Shown one piece after another: positions 8,562 through 46,420 of a stretch of 64,000 bases of DNA. The stretch's first letter is position 1. Each line of letters begins with the position of its first letter. This DNA comes from a virus: positions 1-64,000 of IMG/VR virus record IMGVR_UViG_3300008120_009632, one strand, 5' to 3'. The translations under genes and the position numbers were made by a program. The notes under the pieces are model-generated. The model saw only the letters and a list, made by a program, of their open reading frames with translations, was not told the origin of the DNA and did not search any database.

Positions 8562-9368
8562 TCATGTGTCCTGTATATTAAAAGTATTTGTGCCTGATCC
8601 TGTACTAGACTTAATTTCGGTCAATATATCTATTAGTTGACTATAGATAAAATTAGCTCGACTTTTTGAAAAATCCTTGGTTTGTTTTATTCTTACCAAT
8701 TTCCATCCTTTACCAATAATCAATCCTTCTTTTTTATTGTCGTATGAGATATTTCTTTTTAGAGCTTCATCACCCCAAACTGGTTTGAAATGAGAAGGTC
8801 CGTCTATCTCTATGGCTGTATCAATACTAGGAACAAAAAGGTCGATCTGCAACTTAGTATTTAGTAAGGTTTGTTCTTTATGGAATTCTACCCTATATCC
8901 ATCATTGATCAGATTGACAAGAATATACTTCTCCAGTTTTGATCCTACCTTGCTAGTCTCTCTAACAGCATTATTTGCTAATCTGAGCATTTGCTGTTTT
9001 TCGTCCTGAGATAAATTTTCCCAATTCTGTTTTGCCTTTTTTCTTCTATCATCAATTTCAGATTCTGTTAGATTATCCCACGAATCCATAACAGCTTTAC
9101 CTATTTTATTTTTTGTATCCTCAGACCTTGTGGTGCCTTTTGTGGGATGTTTATGCTTACCTGTGATCAAAGCATTTTTTTGAGCCTCTGATTTATCTCT
9201 TATTTTAATTTTTAACGATACAGCATCTCGTCTAATTTTATTAGCATATGTACCGTATTCACTTGCTATGTCTGCAAAACTCATTTTCTTTTCAACGTAC
9301 ATTTCTTGTAGTATTTTATACTTCTGATTATCATCTAAATTAGAGTATAAGTTTGTTGACTGTTTCAT
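8562..9368 (-). CDS. Vsr/DUF559-type endonuclease with NUMOD3-like motif (homing-type candidate)
   Basis: The start is placed at ATG 9368, preceded by GGAGG at a 9-nt spacing; a TTG two codons upstream is less likely. The N-terminal part resembles a DNA-recognition helix-turn-helix (KKMSFADIASEYGTYANKIRR). The middle has a NUMOD3-like segment (TRSEDTKNKIGKAVMDSW). The C-terminal ~100 residues have the restriction-like fold signature LQIDLFVPSIDTAIEIDG followed by PSHF and GWKLVRIK. This architecture, recognition motifs plus a Vsr-like nuclease, is known in EDxHD-type homing endonucleases. No intron or intein was seen next to it. It may be a free-standing mobile nuclease inserted between the glycan locus and the annealing-protein gene. 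Confidence 0.65.
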   Translation of the reverse strand: MKQSTNLYSNLDDNQKYKILQEMYVEKKMSFADIASEYGTYANKIRRDAVSLKIKIRDKSEAQKNALITGKHKHPTKGTTRSEDTKNKIGKAVMDSWDNLTESEIDDRRKKAKQNWENLSQDEKQQMLRLANNAVRETSKVGSKLEKYILVNLINDGYRVEFHKEQTLLNTKLQIDLFVPSIDTAIEIDGPSHFKPVWGDEALKRNISYDNKKEGLIIGKGWKLVRIKQTKDFSKSRANFIYSQLIDILTEIKSSTGSGTNTFNIQDT

Positions 9369-9804
9369 AATCAAATGCCTCCGAGATACCTACCGAATTG
9401 GACCATACTATATTGTACATATCATGAATATACTTATTAGCAGATATAATACTCAAATTAGTTTTACTAAATAATTCCTTCCATTGAGCATAATAAGACT
9501 GATTATTAGACCATGGAATATTTTGAGCATAATAGTATATTTTGTTTATTAAAGGAAACGAGCCTGAGAGTTGCAAACAATGTAAATCAAAAACTATTAA
9601 ATCGCCATCAAAAAACTTAGCCTGATTGATATGCACTAATGGAATATGTTGAGTATTAATTCTTTCAGAATAACTATTAAATATGCATACTTGCTGTCTG
9701 GGTCTTGATCTTATGAAGCCAGATACTGTATTACATATTATATTAGAATGTTGATTATTATCTAGTACAGGGATTAGAAAACCGAGATCTTTGTTTTGTT
9801 TCAT
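9340..9804 (-). CDS. hypothetical protein of the glycan locus
   Basis: A 154-aa protein with no motif I can name. It is rich in Asn, Ile and aromatic residues and has alternating beta/alpha-like stretches (DGDLIVFDLHCLQLSG, TNLSIISANKYIHDMYN), which would fit part of a Rossmann-type glycosyltransferase. It overlaps the upstream gene by 4 bases and the downstream nuclease start by about 29 bases. It is the last gene of the glycan operon. A degenerate or accessory glycosyltransferase is the best guess, but a weak one. Confidence 0.5.
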   Translation of the reverse strand: MKQNKDLGFLIPVLDNNQHSNIICNTVSGFIRSRPRQQVCIFNSYSERINTQHIPLVHINQAKFFDGDLIVFDLHCLQLSGSFPLINKIYYYAQNIPWSNNQSYYAQWKELFSKTNLSIISANKYIHDMYNIVWSNSVGISEAFDYETVNKLIL

Positions 9805-16345: not shown

Positions 16346-16374
16346 ATTATAGCCCGGTCGGACAAGAATGTCAA
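16346..16374 (-). promoter_or_regulatory. consensus sigma-70 promoter for ssb
   Basis: On the minus strand TTGACA (16374-16369) is followed by exactly 17 bases (16368-16352) and TATAAT (16351-16346). Both hexamers match the bacterial housekeeping consensus perfectly. The -35 box overlaps the TGA stop of the upstream dnaE C-half, and the spacer is unusually GC-rich for this genome. The ssb start codon lies 46 bases downstream of the -10 box. Confidence 0.85.
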
Positions 16375-17987
16375 GACCTGGGAACAAAACATTTATCTAC
16401 GACTAGCCCATCCTTGGTCTTGCTTTTATTTCCCACAAAAATCAAAATATTGTTTTCGAATAAATGATGCTTATATTTTGCATATGTTTCTGGAAAAAAG
16501 ATAACAGAATCTAATGAGCCTGTTTGATCTTCTATTGAAACAAAAGACATCTCCTGTCCAGATAATTTACCCTTTTTAGTTTTTATGACATTAATATTTG
16601 TGATTTCACCAGCAATGACAATATTAGAAGTACTATCATTATTTTTAAATGCTCTACAATCTACATTAGTCATATCTATATCATAACTATCTAACTTAGA
16701 ACAAGATATCGCAGTTCCAAGCAACGAAGCCTCTGTGTCTGCTAGCCATTCTATTTTATCTATTAAAGAATATGGTGGTTTATTAATACTCTGTAATAAT
16801 CCTTGTATTATTTGTTTTCTCTTTAGATTAACCTTGGGATGGCTTAGTAAATAACTTAATATATCTTTTACAGACGTTGTGTTTTTGGTCACTATAATAG
16901 CATATTCTATCTCTTTTTTGGTTAGAGAGCTAATAATATCAAGCTCAAATAACATTTCTGTTCTATTCTTAGATAAATAATCAATAGCTCCACTAGAAAT
17001 CAGAGCTTTAGCTGCTATAGAGTTGATATTGAGCAACAGCTTTATTAAAAGGTCTATCCATCCTAGCTTATACAAATCTATATTTACGCAAATATCTAGG
17101 ATTTTAGCGAATACAGAGTCTCCGACACCTTTTATGTCTGTTAAACCAAAATAAATTTTATTATCAAAGATTCCGAAGTTAGGATTCTTTAATCTTAAAT
17201 CTGGTAAGCAAACAGAAATATCCATTTCGCTTGCGTTCTTAATTAATTCTTTTATTTCCTGTTGAGGATCTATTTTGTCTTTGGCAAATTTTAAATAGGA
17301 TACAAAAAATGCCTCAGGAAAATGAGCTTTTGCATAAGCAGATAAATATGCGTTCATTGCATACGATATGCCGTGAGACTTATTAAAGGAATATCTTTGA
17401 CTTTTTTCGATCCAGCCGAAAATTTCTTCTGCTTCTTGTATATTTACAATTCCTAGTTTTTTTGCTCCATCTAAAAACTTTTGTTTAACCTTGGCCATTT
17501 CTTCTGGTTTTTTCTTACCAATGGCTTTTCTTAACGAATCAGCTTCTTGCAAATCGAATCCAGCTAAGTCTTTAGCTATTGACATAGCTTGTTCTTGATA
17601 AATCATTTCTCCATATGTTGTACTTAAAGATCTTTCAAGAGATTCATGAAAATAATTTATGGATTCTAATCCATTCTTTTTATCTATATAATGATTTGTT
17701 ACGCTTTTGCCGTCTCTGATAGCCTCTAGACATCCTGGTCTTAAGATACTAATAAGACCCGATAATTGTTCTATATTTTCTGGTTTTAATTTTTTTGCCA
17801 TCATTTGTCCAAGTCTGGACTCTAACTGAAAGCAACCTTTAGTATTACCAGAAGAAATAAGCTCCCATGTTTTGGAACATGATAGATTAATAGACTCTAT
17901 TTTTGGAGAAAAAACAAGCTTATGTTTATTTCCAGATGATCCTATTATATCGAAACAACATCCACAATCAAATGACCATTTAGGCAT
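16371..17987 (-). CDS. dnaE: DNA polymerase III alpha subunit, C-terminal part (split gene)
   Basis: A 538-aa protein holding the fingers and downstream parts of bacterial DnaE. Landmarks are KGCFQLESR, SILRPG, TYGEMIYQEQAM, LRKAIGKKKPEEM, RYSFNKSHGISYA, the HhH-like region around IKGVG and ISSGAIDYL, and a C-terminal OB fold (IVIAGEITNINVIKTKKG onward). It ends shortly after the OB fold, without the tau-binding domain. The first ~30 residues (with FDCGCCFDII) have no counterpart at this place in standard DnaE. All three catalytic aspartates are in the other half (18856-20688), so the two must assemble. No intein remnants are visible. The start overlaps the exonuclease stop by 8 bases (ATGCCTAA). 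Confidence 0.88.
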   Translation of the reverse strand: MPKWSFDCGCCFDIIGSSGNKHKLVFSPKIESINLSCSKTWELISSGNTKGCFQLESRLGQMMAKKLKPENIEQLSGLISILRPGCLEAIRDGKSVTNHYIDKKNGLESINYFHESLERSLSTTYGEMIYQEQAMSIAKDLAGFDLQEADSLRKAIGKKKPEEMAKVKQKFLDGAKKLGIVNIQEAEEIFGWIEKSQRYSFNKSHGISYAMNAYLSAYAKAHFPEAFFVSYLKFAKDKIDPQQEIKELIKNASEMDISVCLPDLRLKNPNFGIFDNKIYFGLTDIKGVGDSVFAKILDICVNIDLYKLGWIDLLIKLLLNINSIAAKALISSGAIDYLSKNRTEMLFELDIISSLTKKEIEYAIIVTKNTTSVKDILSYLLSHPKVNLKRKQIIQGLLQSINKPPYSLIDKIEWLADTEASLLGTAISCSKLDSYDIDMTNVDCRAFKNNDSTSNIVIAGEITNINVIKTKKGKLSGQEMSFVSIEDQTGSLDSVIFFPETYAKYKHHLFENNILIFVGNKSKTKDGLVVDKCFVPRS

Positions 17988-18681
17988 TTATAAAAGATCC
18001 TTTAAATTTTACCTTATTAGATAAATTTCTATGTAGTTTTAAAAATCTAATCATAATTTCTGCTGTATCTTTAACATCTTTTAGAGCATCATGAGCATTT
18101 TCTTTATCTATACCAAGATAATCTCTTAAGTTATCTAATGTATAGTTTTTTAATTCATTATTATACTCAAACCAATAAAATAGTAAATTCATAACATCTA
18201 TCACATCTCTTGGATAAAATAGAGAAGATCTACCTTCTTTATTTAGATTATCATACTTTTTACTTAATCTCTCAATGATTCTCAAATCAAATCTATTAAT
18301 ATTGAACCCTGCCGCGATTGGTGCAGAAAAGCAGGACTTTTTATTTCCATTTGATCTGGTATGATACATTTCCAAATAAGAAACAAACATCTTCCATCCG
18401 GCTTCTTGAGGTTGATGTTTCTTCCATGAATCAAGAATAGCCGCCTTAGAACATCCTCTTACTTTAGAGTGAAAGTCTAACACATCGCTATCTTCATAAG
18501 CATAGCCGGTATTGTCCTGTAAAAGTTCTGGTTTAAGATTTATATTAAACTCTGAGTCTTTAACTATCTCTAGTTTTATTGGATCTATAATAATCGCAGC
18601 AATTTGTACTGGACTGCATACATCCGGATTGACTCCATCTGTCTCCATGTCGAAAACACATATTTTTTGAAAATTAGGCAT
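17980..18681 (-). CDS. DnaQ-like DEDDh 3'-5' exonuclease
   Basis: A 233-aa exonuclease. Motif I is FDMETDG (Asp11, Glu13), motif II includes FNINRFDLRIIER, and motif III is AHDALKDVKD, with the H-x4-D spacing of the DEDDh subclass. It probably provides proofreading for the split polymerase encoded on both sides. It begins inside the last codons of the 59-aa gene and ends inside the start of the dnaE C-half. Both junctions read ATGCCTAA, so the gene is flanked by the same short sequence. The Leu/Tyr-rich C-terminal half matches the family length. Confidence 0.85.
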   Translation of the reverse strand: MPNFQKICVFDMETDGVNPDVCSPVQIAAIIIDPIKLEIVKDSEFNINLKPELLQDNTGYAYEDSDVLDFHSKVRGCSKAAILDSWKKHQPQEAGWKMFVSYLEMYHTRSNGNKKSCFSAPIAAGFNINRFDLRIIERLSKKYDNLNKEGRSSLFYPRDVIDVMNLLFYWFEYNNELKNYTLDNLRDYLGIDKENAHDALKDVKDTAEIMIRFLKLHRNLSNKVKFKGSFINA

Positions 18682-18853
18682 TAATTGTCACCGTTGTGGA
18701 TGCTTGAACGAATGTTTTGGTTGATGGATTGTTAGCGTCCTGAGCGTTGATAGATCTGCAACAACTAACTCTAACTTCTTGAATCTTGATATAAGATACT
18801 CCATTTAATTCGAATCTATCTCCGACAGCTAATTCTGAAAATACTTTATTCAT
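18674..18853 (-). CDS. 59-aa conserved-looking small protein between the dnaE halves
   Basis: An ATG at 18853 opens a 59-codon frame ending TAA at 18676-18674. It is preceded by AAGGAG at a good distance, inside the end of the dnaE N-half. The protein begins MNKVFSELAVGDRFELNG, continues VSYIKIQEVRVSCC, and ends with NAQDANNP and TTVTINA. This 'L.VGdrF..nG..Y.Ki' pattern is seen in small phage proteins of unknown function. Its stop overlaps the exonuclease start (ATGCCTAA). The tight spacing on both sides and the strong ribosome binding site make it a real gene. Confidence 0.7.
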   Translation of the reverse strand: MNKVFSELAVGDRFELNGVSYIKIQEVRVSCCRSINAQDANNPSTKTFVQASTTVTINA

Positions 18854-18855
18854 AA

Positions 18856-20688
18856 TTAAACTCCTTCTACTGATAATATTTGGGAAATATTCATAATTTT
18901 ATCTAACATTGCTATTCCAAGAATATCAAATTTGATTACACCTAAAGATTCAAGATCTTGCATTTCCATACCAGCTATTAACTGTTTATTTTTATTATCA
19001 TAAACCATTGGGCATATTTCAGATAACTTTTCTTGAGATATCACAACACCAGCAGCGTGTTTTGATTGGTTAGATTTTGTTCCTTCTAAACGAATCGCTT
19101 GTTCAAATCTTTTAGCGAGAGGACCGGACAGCGTCCCGTCATCTAGTAAATAACACCATTCCTTGAGTTTGTCAACATTATTTTCTAAAGCCCATCGTAT
19201 AATAGATGCTTCTCCCGTTTCCTCTTTCATTTCCTGCAATTCATCTGCTATCTTGGCTTCGTCAGGGATGTATTTGGTTATTTTATTCATTTCATCAAAA
19301 GAAATATTTCCGTATACTCTTAAGACCTCTTTTAATGCTCCTCTTCCTTTCATAGTATTAAAAGTGATCATTTGAGATACTTTATCATGACCATATTTAT
19401 CTTTGATGTATGCAACAACGTCCTCTCTTTTATTGATAGGAACGTCAACGTCTATATCTGGCATGGATACCCTATCCTCTGTATTTCGTCCAGCATTATA
19501 GAATCTCTCAAATATAAGATCATTTTTTATCGGATCTATACTGGTTATGCCTATCAAATATGAAACAAGACACCCTGCCGCACTACCTCTTCCAGGCCCA
19601 GGAAGCCAACCATTAGAGGCCACGTAGTTAACTATATCCTGCACTATTAAAAAGTAGCTAGACAGACCAGCACCCTGTAAAACAGATAGTTCGTATTTGA
19701 TCCTATTGACATACTCTTCTTGTTTATCTTGTTCTATAATATTTGCAATCTTTTCTTTCCAGCCATTTCTACATAATTGTCTCAGATATTCATCCGGATT
19801 ATCATCGTTCGGACACTTAAACAAAGGCAACATTGGTTTATTTGTAATGTCATAATCTTCACACATAGATGCTAATTCTATGGTTTGTTCTAATTCGTCT
19901 TGATTATGTATTTGTGTCATTTCTTCAAATGAAGGAATATGATATTTGTCGGATTTAAAGAAACAAGACATTGGAGTCTCTTCATCAGAAATTAGTTTTC
20001 TGTTAATGTCTGTTAACGTTGTCTTTAAATTATTACACAAGAGAATTCTTTGATCAACAGCATCATCAGACTCACAATAATGAGCATCAGGAGTTGCTAT
20101 TATTTTAGTATTGGTTATTTTAGCCAATCTTCTAATTTCTTGAGTAAGTTCTATCTGGTCCTTATTTTGTTCTTGATCGATTAGTTGTGCTTCAAGAAAA
20201 AAATTATTTTCTCCAAATCCAGCTTTGAGTTTTTGAATAAGATTAATAGTTGCGTTGGAGTCATTATTCTTTATACTATTTGCTACTAACGATCCAAGAT
20301 GACCAGCAAAGCCAATAATATTACCATCTAAATACGGCAATAGAGTATCTATATCTATTCTTGGTTTGTGATAAAAAATATCAGGACTATTAGACTTTGA
20401 AATAATTTTTATTAAAGATTTCCATCCATGATAGTTTTTAGCCAAAACTATAAAATGACTTAATTTAGAATTTTCTGGAGTTTTGACTGTACAATCATTA
20501 TTGGATATATACAATTCACATCCTAATATTGGTTTTATACCATTCTTCTTCATGGAAGAATAAAATTGTACAGCACCAGATATTGTTCCGTGATCTGTGA
20601 TTGCACAAACTTTAGATCCAATTTTTTGGCATCTTTTAGCTATTTGTTCTGGTTTACTGAGTCCATCCAAAAGTGAATAATGAGTCAC
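18856..20688 (-). CDS. dnaE: DNA polymerase III alpha subunit, N-terminal part (PHP and catalytic palm)
   Basis: A 610-aa frame with the PHP domain (THYSLLDGLSKPEQIA, CAITDHGTISGAV, ILGCELYIS, TPDAHYCES) and the polymerase palm. The palm carries two catalytic aspartates in MPDIDVDVP and the third in IKFDILG, just before the end. The frame here begins at GTG 20688, directly after an in-frame TAA. The missing PHP start (YIPLHVHS) is encoded immediately upstream in the same frame behind a strong ribosome binding site (see 20689-20736). Taken as annotated, the protein lacks the first HxH metal motif. It overlaps nothing downstream: its stop is 2 bases from the 59-aa gene. Confidence 0.85.
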   Translation of the reverse strand: MTHYSLLDGLSKPEQIAKRCQKIGSKVCAITDHGTISGAVQFYSSMKKNGIKPILGCELYISNNDCTVKTPENSKLSHFIVLAKNYHGWKSLIKIISKSNSPDIFYHKPRIDIDTLLPYLDGNIIGFAGHLGSLVANSIKNNDSNATINLIQKLKAGFGENNFFLEAQLIDQEQNKDQIELTQEIRRLAKITNTKIIATPDAHYCESDDAVDQRILLCNNLKTTLTDINRKLISDEETPMSCFFKSDKYHIPSFEEMTQIHNQDELEQTIELASMCEDYDITNKPMLPLFKCPNDDNPDEYLRQLCRNGWKEKIANIIEQDKQEEYVNRIKYELSVLQGAGLSSYFLIVQDIVNYVASNGWLPGPGRGSAAGCLVSYLIGITSIDPIKNDLIFERFYNAGRNTEDRVSMPDIDVDVPINKREDVVAYIKDKYGHDKVSQMITFNTMKGRGALKEVLRVYGNISFDEMNKITKYIPDEAKIADELQEMKEETGEASIIRWALENNVDKLKEWCYLLDDGTLSGPLAKRFEQAIRLEGTKSNQSKHAAGVVISQEKLSEICPMVYDNKNKQLIAGMEMQDLESLGVIKFDILGIAMLDKIMNISQILSVEGV

Positions 20689-20690
20689 TT
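20671..20690 (-). other. stem-loop at the in-frame stop in dnaE
   Basis: In the mRNA sense, AAGTGA (20690-20685) pairs with TCACTT (20676-20671) across an 8-nt loop. The left arm begins on the last two bases of the in-frame TAA. A hairpin placed directly at a stop codon is a feature of some recoding sites, but a 6-bp AT-rich stem is weak evidence by itself. Confidence 0.35.
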
Positions 20691-20736
20691 AGGAATGGAC
20701 GTGTAAAGGGATATATTCCTTAATCACGTCCATCAT
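20689..20736 (-). other. upstream 15-codon segment of dnaE ending in in-frame TAA
   Basis: AAGGAG precedes ATGATG at 20736-20731, and the frame encodes MMDVIKEYIPLHVHS before a TAA at 20691-20689. YIPLHVHS is the expected opening of a DnaE PHP domain, whose next residues (HYSLLDG) follow four codons later in the same frame. So this is the genuine 5' end of dnaE, separated from the rest by a 9-nt excess that includes a stop codon. It may be a pseudogene-type lesion, a recoding site or a sequence error. Confidence 0.75.
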
Positions 20737-21741
20737 TTATTCTCCTTCTATGCTTCCTGGAGCTTTATATTTTCCAAACGAATGATTTGGATGTTTATAT
20801 GATTGTACCACAGAATCAATCCCATGCAACTCTAAATCATGTTTGATTTGTTCGCATTTGGTCATAAATTCGCCCTGCTTGCACGTTTGATTATCTCTGT
20901 ATTCTAGTATTGGTAAAATGCTAGAATCAGAAAAGTTAGTTTTTCCAAAATGGCACAATTTATTACACATCCAACTTTTATGCAATTTTGGCTTTTTAAC
21001 CGACTTGATAATCTCAAATTTTTGTCTTAACATATCTTCTGTTTTTTGAAGATCACTCTTATCAAAACATATAGAGAATGGACCACCATCATTAATGAAA
21101 TAGATGGAAAATATAATATGATCTATATGAGGATATAATTGGCTAATAGCATAATGGTATATTCTCAATTGTGGATCATTTTCTAATTTTTCTTGAGTCT
21201 TTTCTTGTCCTGTAGCCCAATCTAATCTTCTTCCAGTTTTCCAATCGATTATTTCAATAGTATTATCATTAACAAGAGTTATTAAGTCGATTGTTCCTTT
21301 TAGCGCCAGATTACCCGTTAAGACCCCGTCTGGTGTTTTAAAAGAGTATTCAGACCACGCTTTATTTATAGTAAAGTCGAAGTGTTGCTCCGGCTCAAGA
21401 ATTTTCCTATTTCTGGGATCAAACATACCATTATTGAATTTGATTGCCTTGTACACCCATTCTGTACAGTCTTTTTTGTCTTTAGGGCTCCATTTATGGT
21501 GTTTGGCAGATACCGAATAATGATTATAGACTACATCTATGATTTTTTCTAGATCATAATTGTTGATATCTATTAAGCCCGCTATATCATCATTGATGTT
21601 TGATTGGTTATCTTGTTCGGCTTTTTTAATAACAGCTAAAATTTCAAGAACTTTATGTACTATTGTTCCTTTATCAGCCTTTTGTCCAGACGGTCCTCGC
21701 CAACCAAGCACATATTCGATAAAATACTGCTGCTCACACAT
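20737..21741 (-). CDS. RecB/Cas4-like PD-(D/E)XK nuclease
   Basis: A 334-aa nuclease. Landmarks are GTIVHKVLEILA (the His motif), LKGTIDLITL with EIIDWKTGR (the catalytic D...D-x-K core) and QLRIYHYAI (the QxxxY-type motif). Cysteines near the end (MCNKLCHFG, TCKQGEFMTKC) could bind an Fe-S cluster or zinc as in Cas4/AddB relatives. It probably processes DNA ends in phage recombination or replication. The first ATG is 21741, but codons upstream (TYFRSSSFNAHS) look like the family's conserved N-terminus, implying a non-ATG start near 21786-21780. It is followed directly by dnaE. Confidence 0.8.
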   Translation of the reverse strand: MCEQQYFIEYVLGWRGPSGQKADKGTIVHKVLEILAVIKKAEQDNQSNINDDIAGLIDINNYDLEKIIDVVYNHYSVSAKHHKWSPKDKKDCTEWVYKAIKFNNGMFDPRNRKILEPEQHFDFTINKAWSEYSFKTPDGVLTGNLALKGTIDLITLVNDNTIEIIDWKTGRRLDWATGQEKTQEKLENDPQLRIYHYAISQLYPHIDHIIFSIYFINDGGPFSICFDKSDLQKTEDMLRQKFEIIKSVKKPKLHKSWMCNKLCHFGKTNFSDSSILPILEYRDNQTCKQGEFMTKCEQIKHDLELHGIDSVVQSYKHPNHSFGKYKAPGSIEGE

Positions 21742-29092: not shown

Positions 29093-29506
29093 TTATATTT
29101 CTCGTTGAGCCGAGACTAAAAATTTTTTACTTTTTGTTTTCAGAAAAGAAACATATTGGTTAAATATGCTATGAGTAACTTCAGTAAAGATTTGCTCGTT
29201 CTTGCAAACTTTATTGATATATGACTGATTCTTTGTTGTAATAGATAATAGCGATGACTCTTCTATTGGATTATAGAGATTATTATTGGAATCTGTTAAT
29301 ATATAATATCTATACTGAAGTAATTTATTGTGAATATCTTTTGATGAATAACTTTTAATAGCTTTAGCATATATCTTATCAGACTCTGCTGTTGTTCTAG
29401 GATCTCCATTATCGTCTATAAAAGATTCTAAGCCATTGATAGTATAAAACTTATCTTCTGTGGTATCTCTGGTACTAATTTTATAATCAGATGCATTTAC
29501 TCTCAT
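29093..29506 (-). CDS. hypothetical protein, paralogue of 28025-28414
   Basis: A 137-aa protein with no named domain, but clearly related along its length to the 129-aa product of 28025-28414. Shared features are ESFIDDNGDPRTTAESDKIY near the start, a central YRYYILTDSNNNLYNPI strand pair and the end FLKTKSKKFLVSAQRE. It overlaps the HNH nuclease gene by 20 bases upstream. Duplicates kept in one operon suggest a complex of both or a dosage effect; nothing more can be inferred. Confidence 0.65.
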   Translation of the reverse strand: MRVNASDYKISTRDTTEDKFYTINGLESFIDDNGDPRTTAESDKIYAKAIKSYSSKDIHNKLLQYRYYILTDSNNNLYNPIEESSLLSITTKNQSYINKVCKNEQIFTEVTHSIFNQYVSFLKTKSKKFLVSAQREI

Positions 29507-30089
29507 TATTAATATAACCTTCTATAAATGGAGCCCATTCAGGAAAACTACCATCTATAGTAAAAAAGTCACGATACCACGGCAAGTAGACGGAGCAATA
29601 TTTTGGTATAATTGGCTGATTAAGAAGTTTCATATTGGCTTCTTTTGGTGTTCTATTCCCTTTTTTATTATTGCATTCCCAACAACAGGTTACGATATTA
29701 ATCCAATTTGTGCATTTATGTTTATTGTTTCTGTCAAATCTACTTTTTGGAACAACATGATCATATGTCAACTGTGCAATAGGTAATTTTTTGGCACAGT
29801 ATTGGCATGTATAATTATCTCTTATGAATAAATTTTTACGAGAAAAATTAATGGTTCTATGGTAGAGATTAAAAAAGTTTCGGATTTTTGCTACGGCAGG
29901 AACTGGGTATCTTTTCCCACAACTGCCTTGTATAAATTCATCATCATAATAAGATATTATTTCAATAGCATATTTATGTTCTAAAGTATATTTCATAGAC
30001 CATATAATGGCTTTTTTCCAAGATATTATATGTATCGGTGTGTAGTCAGCATTTAATAAAAGGCACTGTTTATGATTTATTTCTTTCAT
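29487..30089 (-). CDS. HNH endonuclease
   Basis: A 200-aa protein. It begins with the 'vLNAdYtPihiiSWkkAi' segment that marks a family of stand-alone HNH proteins. The core is YTCQYCAKKLPIAQLTYDHV, then PKSRF, and WINIVTCCWECNNKKGNRTP: paired CxxC zinc ligands plus the His-Asn-His nuclease residues. It may nick or cut DNA in replication, recombination or as a mobile nuclease. No intron is adjacent. It overlaps phoH by 20 bases and the next gene by 20. Confidence 0.8.
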   Translation of the reverse strand: MKEINHKQCLLLNADYTPIHIISWKKAIIWSMKYTLEHKYAIEIISYYDDEFIQGSCGKRYPVPAVAKIRNFFNLYHRTINFSRKNLFIRDNYTCQYCAKKLPIAQLTYDHVVPKSRFDRNNKHKCTNWINIVTCCWECNNKKGNRTPKEANMKLLNQPIIPKYCSVYLPWYRDFFTIDGSFPEWAPFIEGYINNESKCI

Positions 30090-44534: not shown

Positions 44535-45818
44535 TTAATCATTGATTATATATAATGTATTTGGGTCGGGACTACTTATACTATCATAATTAGTTTGACT
44601 AAGTTGAACAATATTAGTAATAGTAGAGGCTCCTGTTATGCCAGTTATATCACTAACAACCAAGTTATTAGGAAGTATTGCCTGTTCGCCTTGGTAACCC
44701 TGACTACCTTGTTCGCCTTGGTAGCCCTGATCACCTTGGTAACCCTGACTACCTTGTTCGCCTTGGTAGCCCTGATCACCTTGGTAACCCTGACTACCTT
44801 GGTCTCCTTGATATCCTTGATCGCCCTGATAGCCTTGATCTCCTTGGTAACCTTGTTCTCCTTGGTAGCCTTGATCACCTTGATAACCTTGGTAACCCTG
44901 ATTTCCGTCATTACCTTGGTAACCCTGATCTCCTTGAAAACCTTGATCACCTTGGAATCCCTGAGTTCCTCCATTACCATCAGCACCTTGAGCACCTTGA
45001 TCACCTTGGTAGCCTTGATCGCCTTGATCGCCTTGAAAACCTTGATTGCCATCTGGGCCTTGAGACCCTTGTGGGCCTTCTAATCCTTGATTTCCGTCCG
45101 GACCTTGGTTTCCGTCCGGACCTTGGAATCCTTGATTACCATCTTGCCCCGGAAGGCCTTGATTGCCATCTGGTCCTTGGTTTCCAGAATCTCCTTGAGA
45201 TCCTTGGAATCCAATATCTCCTTGGTTACCTTGATATCCTTGTTCCCCCTGATAACCTTGATAACCTTGATCTCCTTGAAAACCTTGATCGCCCTGATAG
45301 CCTTGGTAACCCTGGTCGCCTTGTGGACCTTGATTACCAGAAAATCCTGCCTCTCCTTGATAACCTTGATCACCTTGATATCCCTGATAGCCTTGATCTC
45401 CTTGGTATCCTTGTTCACCTTGATAGCCTTGTTCGCCTTGATAACCTTGATCTCCTTGAAAACCTTGAGCACCATCATTACCTTGAAATCCTTGATCCCC
45501 TTGATTTCCTTGATTACCCTGTTCACCTTGGTAGCCTTGTTCACCTTGGGATCCTTGATCACCCTTGCTAAGAACTAATGTCCAATTTCCAGGATATGCT
45601 ACTGGATTATAACCAGCAGCACCAATATAAGCTGTCATAACATACAATGATCCGTTATATGTAATTGCCTGACCTTCTGAGTAAGTCACGCCGTCATTAT
45701 ATGCTCCTAAATAATTAAATGCTTGAGATCCTTGAGGACCAGCATCTCCTTGTGGACCTTGATCTCCTTGACTACCTTGCGGACCAGAATCTCCTTGAGA
45801 TCCCTGATCTCCTTGCAC
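44535..45818 (-). CDS. collagen-like fibre, C-terminal part (after the frameshift)
   Basis: A 427-aa frame from a GTG at 45818 made of Gly-X-Gln triplets (GYQGDQGYQGEQ and variants). It carries a non-collagen insert near residues 35-85 (ITYNGSLYVMTAYIG, then WTLVLSKG), which resembles a chitin-binding CBM5/12 module. The end is SQTNYDSISSPDPNTLYIIN, a typical last strand of phage collar or fibre proteins. The same frame is continuous with the ORF at 45707-46420 if one copy of a 107-bp duplication is removed, so this is not an independent gene. It is likely a trimeric, rod-like surface fibre. Confidence 0.7.
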   Translation of the reverse strand: MQGDQGSQGDSGPQGSQGDQGPQGDAGPQGSQAFNYLGAYNDGVTYSEGQAITYNGSLYVMTAYIGAAGYNPVAYPGNWTLVLSKGDQGSQGEQGYQGEQGNQGNQGDQGFQGNDGAQGFQGDQGYQGEQGYQGEQGYQGDQGYQGYQGDQGYQGEAGFSGNQGPQGDQGYQGYQGDQGFQGDQGYQGYQGEQGYQGNQGDIGFQGSQGDSGNQGPDGNQGLPGQDGNQGFQGPDGNQGPDGNQGLEGPQGSQGPDGNQGFQGDQGDQGYQGDQGAQGADGNGGTQGFQGDQGFQGDQGYQGNDGNQGYQGYQGDQGYQGEQGYQGDQGYQGDQGYQGDQGSQGYQGDQGYQGEQGSQGYQGDQGYQGEQGSQGYQGEQAILPNNLVVSDITGITGASTITNIVQLSQTNYDSISSPDPNTLYIIND

Positions 45819-46420
45819 TCCTTGATCTCCCTGAGATCCCTGATCTCCTTGACTTCCCTGACTACCTTGAGATCCTTGGTCTCCTTGGTTTCCTTGATTC
45901 CTTGAGATCCCTGATCTCCTTGCACTCCTTGATCTCCCTGAGATCCCTGATCTCCTTGACTTCCCTGACTACCTTGAGATCCTTGGTCTCCTTGGTTTCC
46001 TTGATGGCCTTGTTCTCCTTGGAGTCCTTGATTACCATCTGGCCCTTGGTTACCGTCTGGCCCTTGATTACCGTCTGGCCCTTGATTACCGTCTGGACCT
46101 TGATTACCGTCTGGACTACCTTGAAAACCTTGCGGACCAGTATCTCCTTGATCTCCTTTGGACCCCTGACTACCTTGAGAGCCTTGAACCCCTTGATATC
46201 CTTGAGGGCCTTGAACTCCTTGAAAGCCTTGGTTACCTTGGGTTCCTAAACTTCCTTGATATCCTTGTGGGCCTTGAGCACCAGAACCTGAGGACAATAA
46301 TGAATTGACGGTTATATATTCAGTAATAGCAGACCCACTAGGGTCACTCATTATGACTAATAAATCGTTGCCGTTTATGTTTTCATTTTCTGGTAATTCA
46401 TTAATTCTAATAATAGGCAT
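45707..46420 (-). CDS. collagen-like fibre, N-terminal part (before the frameshift)
   Basis: A 237-aa frame that opens MPIIRINELPENENINGNDL, then LLVIMSDPSG, an attachment-type N-terminus as found in phage structural proteins. It continues as Gly-X-Gln collagen triplets, including DGNQGPDGNQGPDGNQ. Near codon 175 the triplet pattern is lost and the frame runs in a shifted, Lys/Glu-rich register (KETKETKDLKVVREVKEI) to a stop. The shift lies at a perfect 107-bp tandem duplication (45792-46005). Without one copy, 44535-46420 is one 592-codon fibre. Confidence 0.75.
   Translation of the reverse strand: MPIIRINELPENENINGNDLLVIMSDPSGSAITEYITVNSLLSSGSGAQGPQGYQGSLGTQGNQGFQGVQGPQGYQGVQGSQGSQGSKGDQGDTGPQGFQGSPDGNQGPDGNQGPDGNQGPDGNQGPDGNQGLQGEQGHQGNQGDQGSQGSQGSQGDQGSQGDQGVQGDQGSQGIKETKETKDLKVVREVKEIRDLREIKECKEIRDLKEILVRKVVKEIKVHKEMLVLKDLKHLII
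45792..46005. repeat. perfect 107-bp tandem duplication in the collagen-like gene
   Basis: Copies at 45792-45898 and 45899-46005 are identical along 107 bases and abut exactly. Because 107 is not a multiple of 3, the second copy shifts the frame. The distance 44535-46420 less 107 equals 1779, which is 593 codons. The duplication most likely arose within the short TCCTTG-rich repeats around it, or it may be an assembly artefact of repetitive DNA. Confidence 0.85.

What the first reader, a model, noticed from the sequence alone, without database searches (positions are those of the whole stretch)
20671..20736. In-frame TAA inside the first PHP metal motif of DnaE, downstream of a strong ribosome binding site
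The minus strand reads AAGGAG, ATGATG, then codons for MMDVIKEYIPLHVHS, TAA, and then VTHYSLLDG in the same frame. YIPLHVHS joined to HYSLLDG is the normal opening of bacterial DnaE. Exactly 9 extra bases, including the stop, separate the two parts, and a 6-bp stem-loop begins on the stop. Either the replicative polymerase is translated by stop readthrough or bypassing, or it starts at the GTG after the stop and has lost its first HxH motif, or the 9 bases are a recent lesion or an assembly error. An interrupted essential gene that is otherwise intact is worth explaining.
Basis: partly seen in the sequence, partly recalled or inferred. Interest (0 to 1): 0.78.

Follow-up and report, generated by a model that had tools for sequence, protein, structure and literature searches.

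The report
Ribosome-hopping site in phage DNA polymerase
Many uncultured bacteriophages carry a stop codon plus 8-12 extra bases in the middle of the metal-site motif of their DNA polymerase gene, flanked by conserved RNA hairpins, which strongly suggests that ribosomes hop over the gap; only one such phage system (T4 gene 60) has been worked out so far.

Summary
In detail: on the minus strand, ATG GAC GTG ... CAC GTC CAT TCC is followed by TAAGTGACT and then CAT TAT TCA, splitting the first PHP motif of DnaE (LHVHS|HYSLLDG). It is neither an error nor a recent lesion. About 50 viral contigs (22 distinct insert sequences) carry an insert at exactly this codon junction. It always starts with a stop (UAA, UAG or UGA) and is 8, 9, 10, 11 or 12 nt long, so there is no frame constraint. 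A scan that allowed any 1-30 nt insert without a stop found only these contigs. Relatives without an insert read straight through. Interrupted genes share: a 5' hairpin from the start codon to the HVH codons (9/9 pairs in 34/34); a Ser take-off codon UCY; a covarying hairpin that begins at the stop; and a Ser codon (UCN; ACU in 3 of 22) just before coding resumes. Readthrough, one frameshift, or restart downstream cannot explain all lengths. Best explanation: programmed translational bypassing, built like T4 gene 60 but with a much shorter gap and a different gene. The insert is scattered over the dnaE tree (one clade rejected), so it was gained, lost or exchanged repeatedly. No experiment yet shows the fused protein.

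The parts
20742..20747 (-). AAGGAG ribosome-binding site of dnaE (N part)
   Evidence: sequence; GGAG-like sites also precede the ATG in many relatives
20725..20733 (-). 5' arm of 5' hairpin (SL1), ATGGACGTG, includes the start codon
   Evidence: 9/9 pairs with 20695-20703 in 34/34 sequences; GTG-CAC / ATG-CAT covariation
20695..20703 (-). 3' arm of SL1, CACGTCCAT, encodes H-V-H (first PHP metal motif)
   Evidence: Val codon GTC 12/12 interrupted vs 0/44 uninterrupted; SL1 free energy -18.0 vs -2.8 kcal/mol
20692..20694 (-). take-off codon TCC (Ser)
   Evidence: UCC or UCU in all interrupted copies
20689..20691 (-). in-frame stop TAA, first codon of the gap
   Evidence: every insert starts with UAA, UAG or UGA although the scan did not ask for it
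20683..20691 (-). 9-nt non-coding gap TAAGTGACT (8-12 nt in relatives)
20685..20690 (-). 5' arm of gap hairpin (SL2), AAGTGA
   Evidence: covaries with the Ser-Leu codons downstream: 151/156 cells paired, shuffled mean 130, max 144 of 20000
20671..20676 (-). 3' arm of SL2, TCACTT, encodes Ser-Leu of HYSLLDG
   Evidence: Ser is TCN in 12/12 interrupted, AGY in 22/44 uninterrupted
20683..20685 (-). inferred landing codon ACT (UCN in 19 of 22 distinct inserts)
20661..20668 (-). GGATGGAC, can pair with GTCCATTC (20693-20700), outer part of an alternative take-off stem-loop
   Evidence: predicted in many of the 34 folds and in the window; alternative to SL1
18856..20682 (-). dnaE N part after resumption (PHP domain and Pol III alpha NTPase/palm)
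   Evidence: Pfam PHP and DNA_pol3_alpha; an uninterrupted relative (P0001) matches solved DnaE chains, best 2hpi
16371..17987 (-). dnaE C part (fingers, HhH, OB), separate gene across the clade
17980..18681 (-). DnaQ/RNase_T-like exonuclease gene between the two dnaE parts

Best explanation
Programmed translational bypassing of an 8-12 nt gap. A ribosome starts at ATG(GAC/GGC GTG), makes a peptide of about 13-15 residues ending in Y-x-P-L-H-V-H-S, and stops with peptidyl-tRNA-Ser on the take-off codon UCY while the stop codon is in the A site. The stop lies at the base of a short hairpin (SL2) that can form in the A site and keep release factor out. The tRNA lets go, the mRNA slides 8-12 nt, and the anticodon re-pairs with the Ser-like codon (UCN, sometimes ACU) in or beside the hairpin loop. 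Decoding resumes at CAY, giving an uninterrupted LHVHSHYSLLDG. The start-codon hairpin (SL1) re-forms behind the ribosome and may pull it forward, as the 5' stem-loop is thought to do in T4 gene 60. Shown here: anatomy, conservation, covariation, frame independence, wide distribution. Inferred: the ribosome movement, A-site hairpin, re-pairing and the motor role.
For: (1) Same junction, lengths 8/9/10/11/12 nt in 5/11/8/14/1 of 39 distinct dnaE sequences, so no frame is preferred. (2) A scan allowing any 1-30 nt insert returned the same 48 contigs as the scan requiring a stop; all stop-started, all 8-12 nt. (3) All three stops are used; UGA in L169/L170 fits a changed hairpin pair. (4) The codon before resumption is UCN in 19 of 22 distinct inserts and NCN in all, though it would not be decoded. 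(5) SL2 covariation: p1-L3 pairs TA 8, AT 16, GC 1; p4-S3 TA 17, CG 3, AT 2; no shuffle of 20000 reaches the observed pairing. (6) SL1: 9/9 pairs in 34/34; 39-nt energy -18.0 +/- 1.4 vs -2.8 +/- 1.6 in uninterrupted relatives (Mann-Whitney U = 0). (7) Codon use is remodelled only in interrupted genes (Val GTC 12/12 vs 0/44). (8) Other conserved PHP Asp/Glu/His residues are kept in both groups, so a complete metal site is presumably made. (9) No second dnaE copy in eight long contigs. (10) T4 gene 60 has the same list of parts: stop next to take-off codon, take-off stem-loop, 5' stem-loop, matched landing codon (PMC5009743, PMC11194080).
Against: No protein, ribosome profile or reporter shows the fused product. 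In the window's own copy the landing codon is ACU, one mismatch beyond wobble from UCC. The nascent peptide is too short for a KKYK-like tunnel signal as in gene 60. There is no Shine-Dalgarno-like sequence next to the landing codon. The window's own 9-nt gap taken alone would also allow readthrough. All data are metagenomic contigs; no isolate or host is known. RNA-level removal of the gap is not formally excluded.
Confidence: 0.82

Rival explanations
1. Stop-codon readthrough (9 and 12 nt) or readthrough plus frameshifting (8, 10, 11 nt), stimulated by the hairpin, gives a DnaE with 3-4 extra residues between S and H.
For: A hairpin next to a stop can stimulate recoding; in the window (9 nt) readthrough alone restores the frame; most inserts are open when read backward from CAY.
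Against: Needs -1, 0 and +1 events at one site, depending on the virus; L013 has an in-frame TGA inside its 10-nt insert when read in the downstream frame; extra residues directly after the HxH metal ligands are seen in no uninterrupted relative and not in the solved DnaE aligned.
Confidence: 0.06
2. The 14-codon ORF is a leader peptide; dnaE is restarted after the stop and lacks the first metal motif; the hairpins regulate initiation.
For: SL1 includes the start codon; the window has an in-frame GTG after the stop; TTG at codon 5 of HYSLL is common.
Against: Most inserts have no ATG/GTG/TTG in the downstream frame; TTG at codon 5 is also the commonest codon in uninterrupted genes (28/44), and some interrupted ones have CTG there; no ribosome-binding site is seen before it; the HVHS coding and the other conserved PHP residues are kept.
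Confidence: 0.05
3. The gap is removed from the RNA (a very small intron-like excision and ligation) before translation.
For: Conserved structured RNA around two fixed junctions; independent of length, like splicing.
Against: No intron class known to me has this form; a splicing model does not predict a stop as first codon, nor a Ser-like codon before resumption; SL2's 3' arm lies in coding sequence.
Confidence: 0.05
4. Assembly error or dead gene.
For: None beyond the broken frame itself.
Against: About 50 contigs, 22 distinct inserts with compensatory changes, intact downstream gene, no second copy.
Confidence: 0.01

Closest known systems
Phage T4 gene 60 translational bypassing (50-nt gap in a topoisomerase subunit)
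   Same: Stop directly after the take-off codon, stem-loop at the stop, separate 5' stem-loop upstream, landing codon like the take-off codon, resumption at the next codon (PMC5009743, PMC11194080).
   Different: Gap 8-12 nt instead of 50; Ser UCY instead of Gly GGA; take-off after about 14 residues, so no KKYK signal in the exit tunnel; 5' hairpin contains the start codon; found in dnaE; many natural length variants.
Mitochondrial bypassing elements (byps) of the yeast Magnusiomyces capitatus
   Same: Short inserts skipped by ribosomes; take-off and landing codons not always perfectly matched (PMC5009743).
   Different: Here one gene, one site, with conserved covarying hairpins and a stop at the start of each gap, in phages.
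Synthetic 'stop-hops' and the candidate bypass in Streptomyces phage Hau3 terminase
   Same: Short-distance hop over a stop between matched codons (stop-hop); phage gene (Hau3) (PMC5009743).
   Different: Stop-hops were artificial constructs; the Hau3 case is described there as linked to a UUA codon, not to a stop with hairpins.

Membership tests
Programmed translational bypassing (T4 gene 60 type) | Two ORF parts of one conserved protein separated by a gap not held to a multiple of three | tested here: met
   8-12 nt gaps inside LHVHS|HYSLLDG
[quoted passage not shown]
   all inserts, found also without asking for a stop
Programmed translational bypassing (T4 gene 60 type) | Landing codon matching the take-off codon, directly before the resume codon | tested here: met
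   UCN in 19 of 22 distinct inserts; ACU (partial match) in 3, including the window
Programmed translational bypassing (T4 gene 60 type) | Stem-loop at the take-off site that includes the stop | tested here: met
   SL2 covariation
Programmed translational bypassing (T4 gene 60 type) | Independent 5' stem-loop upstream | tested here: met
   SL1 in 34/34
Programmed translational bypassing (T4 gene 60 type) | KKYK-like nascent peptide signal about 30 residues before take-off | tested here: not met
   only about 13-15 residues precede take-off; this signal is specific to gene 60, not to bypassing in general
Programmed translational bypassing (T4 gene 60 type) | Shine-Dalgarno-like sequence 6 nt before the landing codon | tested here: not met
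   none in the gaps listed; its effect is modest in gene 60 (PMC5009743)
Programmed translational bypassing (T4 gene 60 type) | Demonstrated fusion protein with nothing inserted from the gap | not testable with these tools
   needs proteomics or a reporter
Stop-codon readthrough | Downstream ORF in the same frame as the stop | tested here: not met
   8, 10 and 11 nt inserts are out of frame
Bacterial-type DnaE (Pol III alpha) | PHP plus polymerase domains with conserved motifs | tested here: met
   Pfam and PDB matches; split into two genes in this clade

The most novel reading that the evidence does not exclude
A new, horizontally exchanged class of minimal translational-bypass element: about 75-85 nt, self-contained (start-codon hairpin, Ser take-off, stop-hairpin, Ser landing), that has repeatedly entered or left the replicative polymerase gene of one large phage clade, perhaps because it destroys a conserved target site for a homing or defence nuclease or because it gates polymerase synthesis.
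Probability: 0.45. Interest if true: 0.92.

Novelty: new variant of a known kind. Interest (0 to 1): 0.86.

Why it matters
Efficient bypassing in phages is understood from one case, T4 gene 60. Here nature supplies 22 distinct gap sequences of five lengths with close uninterrupted relatives, in an essential enzyme. They tell which parts are kept: hairpin at the stop, start-codon hairpin, Ser codons. They also suggest that bypassing can work with a very short nascent chain. That makes the question 'what is minimally needed for a ribosome to hop' directly testable. It also warns that gene callers will misannotate such polymerases as truncated.

Tried and rejected
Start at the GTG after the stop: rejected, most relatives have no start codon there. 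Readthrough or a single frameshift: rejected by mixed lengths. Suppressor tRNA or altered code: all three stops occur in inserts and no tRNA gene was found in the window. Backup dnaE copy: none in G000 or in eight longer contigs. Search for further interrupted genes by split homology (covers mainly window 12-43 kb and is blind to very short N-terminal pieces) and by a hairpin-plus-stop scan of 6.3 Mb counting both strands: only the dnaE copies stood out; the other hits look like AT-rich chance. Search of GTDB genomes for the element: no match, so no host or prophage link. Near-identical DNA in GenBank phages: none. RNAalifold on the MAFFT alignment shows only SL1, because SL2 has two registers offset by one base; SL2 was therefore counted in register by script, the better of two registers being chosen per sequence. 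Paper searches for a dnaE bypass found nothing; the library is open-access only, and no bioRxiv preprints are held.

Full report
Observation. The minus strand at 20747-20661 reads AAGGAG, ATG ATG GAC GTG ATT AAG GAA TAT ATC CCT TTA CAC GTC CAT TCC, TAAGTGACT, CAT TAT TCA CTT TTG GAT GGA C. The two halves are the opening of DnaE, LHVHS and HYSLLDG, split by nine bases that begin with TAA. The downstream ORF is a PHP plus Pol III alpha N-terminal part. Without the upstream half its Pfam PHP match begins at profile position 6; an uninterrupted relative matches from position 2. The solved DnaE aligned has no residues between these halves.

Relatives. A protein search of IMG/VR gave 80 loci with 67-100% identity. 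Sixty-two of them read through this junction without a break (for example M-K-x-Y-x-P-L-H-x-H-S-H-Y-S). Eighteen have an insert at exactly the same junction. A DNA pattern scan raised this to 34 distinct sequences with inserts of 8, 9, 10, 11 or 12 nt. A scan with free codons and TRA stops added L169 and L170, whose insert starts with TGA. A scan that asked for no stop and allowed inserts of 1-30 nt returned exactly the same 48 contigs. So at this site every insert begins with a stop, and the length is 8-12 nt in all three phases. Limits: these scans fix TCN for both Ser codons and YTGGATGGA downstream. The protein search has no such limit and gave the same picture.

RNA anatomy. In all 34 sequences the nine bases from the start codon (ATGGRYRTG) pair with CAYGTCCAT, the H-V-H codons. 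Where the third codon is GTG the His is CAC (24; one exception, kept by G-U), and where it is ATG the His is CAT (9). The 39-nt segment has mean free energy -18.0 +/- 1.4 kcal/mol against -2.8 +/- 1.6 in 41 uninterrupted relatives, without overlap (U = 0). A second hairpin begins on the first or second base of the stop and pairs with the downstream Ser-Leu codons. Of 156 pair cells 151 are standard, and 20000 shuffles of the partner arm reach at most 144. Typical compensations are AAGUGA/UCACUU, UAGAGA/UCUCUA, UAACGA/UCGUUA, UAGCGA/UCGCUA and, with UGA, GAGUG/CACUC. As the gap lengthens to 10-12 nt the stem generally lengthens by one or two pairs and the loop stays at 6-9 nt. GUCCAUUC can also pair with GGAUGGAC downstream, giving a longer take-off stem-loop that competes with the first hairpin.

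Take-off and landing. The codon before the stop is UCC or UCU. The triplet before the resume codon CAY is UCN in 19 of 22 distinct inserts and ACU in three; ACU occurs only with UCC take-off. This triplet would not be decoded if the gap is skipped, so its likeness to the take-off codon is best explained by re-pairing of peptidyl-tRNA-Ser.

Selection. Codon choice is remodelled only in interrupted genes: Val GTC 12/12 against 0/44, first His CAC 10/12 against 5/44, Ser of HYS never AGY against 22/44. The conserved PHP Asp, Glu and His residues downstream are kept in both groups. There is no second dnaE in eight contigs of 84-238 kb. The gene is therefore in use and its first metal motif is presumably made.

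Mechanism. A single mechanism that is blind to frame, needs a stop, a hairpin at the stop, an upstream hairpin and like codons on both sides is programmed translational bypassing. In T4 gene 60 the stop follows the take-off GGA, an mRNA stem-loop forms in the A site, a 5' stem-loop refolding behind the ribosome promotes sliding, and landing is on a matched GGA (PMC5009743, PMC11194080). The present element has the same parts in a smaller form. By position, the 3' arm of the start-codon hairpin lies in the E site and exit channel at take-off and would be freed as the ribosome slides, so re-pairing could drive or hold the move (inference). The short nascent chain means that the KKYK tunnel signal of gene 60 cannot operate here.

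Evolution. On a tree of 84 dnaE N parts the insert needs 16 changes, at least 7 forced by well-supported branches, and a single clade is rejected (p about 6e-50). Some distant pairs have identical first 42 nt although the protein just downstream is only 50-63% identical (L127/L060, L109/L134). L072, uninterrupted and close to L056/L060 in the tree, lacks both the start-codon arm and the insert. Horizontal exchange of the 5' end is likely; repeated loss from an ancestral state is also possible, and structural constraint adds to the likeness. Why it is kept is unknown. Protection of a conserved site from a nuclease, as proposed for gene 60 (PMC5009743), or control of polymerase synthesis, are the leading ideas.

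What is not shown. No product, no host, no isolate. For the window alone (9 nt, ACU landing) readthrough would also restore the frame; the case rests on the relatives. The literature search covered open-access papers only and found no report of bypassing in dnaE.

Noticed in passing
window 16371-20682 (minus): dnaE is split into two genes (PHP/palm and fingers/HhH/OB) with a DnaQ-like exonuclease gene between them; the same order is seen in the relatives checked.
   Followed up: partly
window 45700-45920 (minus): A collagen-like (Q-G repeat) gene changes frame inside the repeats near 45898; a base seems to be missing in CAAGGAATCAAGG, and the repeat block just downstream continues in another frame. 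Could be a repeat assembly error or phase variation.
   Followed up: partly
L079 3034-4974: The PDDEXK nuclease gene upstream of dnaE is interrupted by about 930 nt (matches to query residues 1-174 and 169-331), possibly an intron or mobile gene.
   Followed up: no
L056 6821-7736: About 900 nt instead of about 190 nt between the dnaE N part and the exonuclease gene, probably an extra gene.
   Followed up: no
window 29487-30089 and 8562-9374 (minus): An HNH endonuclease (Pfam) and a protein that looks like a homing-type endonuclease but has no Pfam match; candidates for mobile nucleases in this clade.
   Followed up: no
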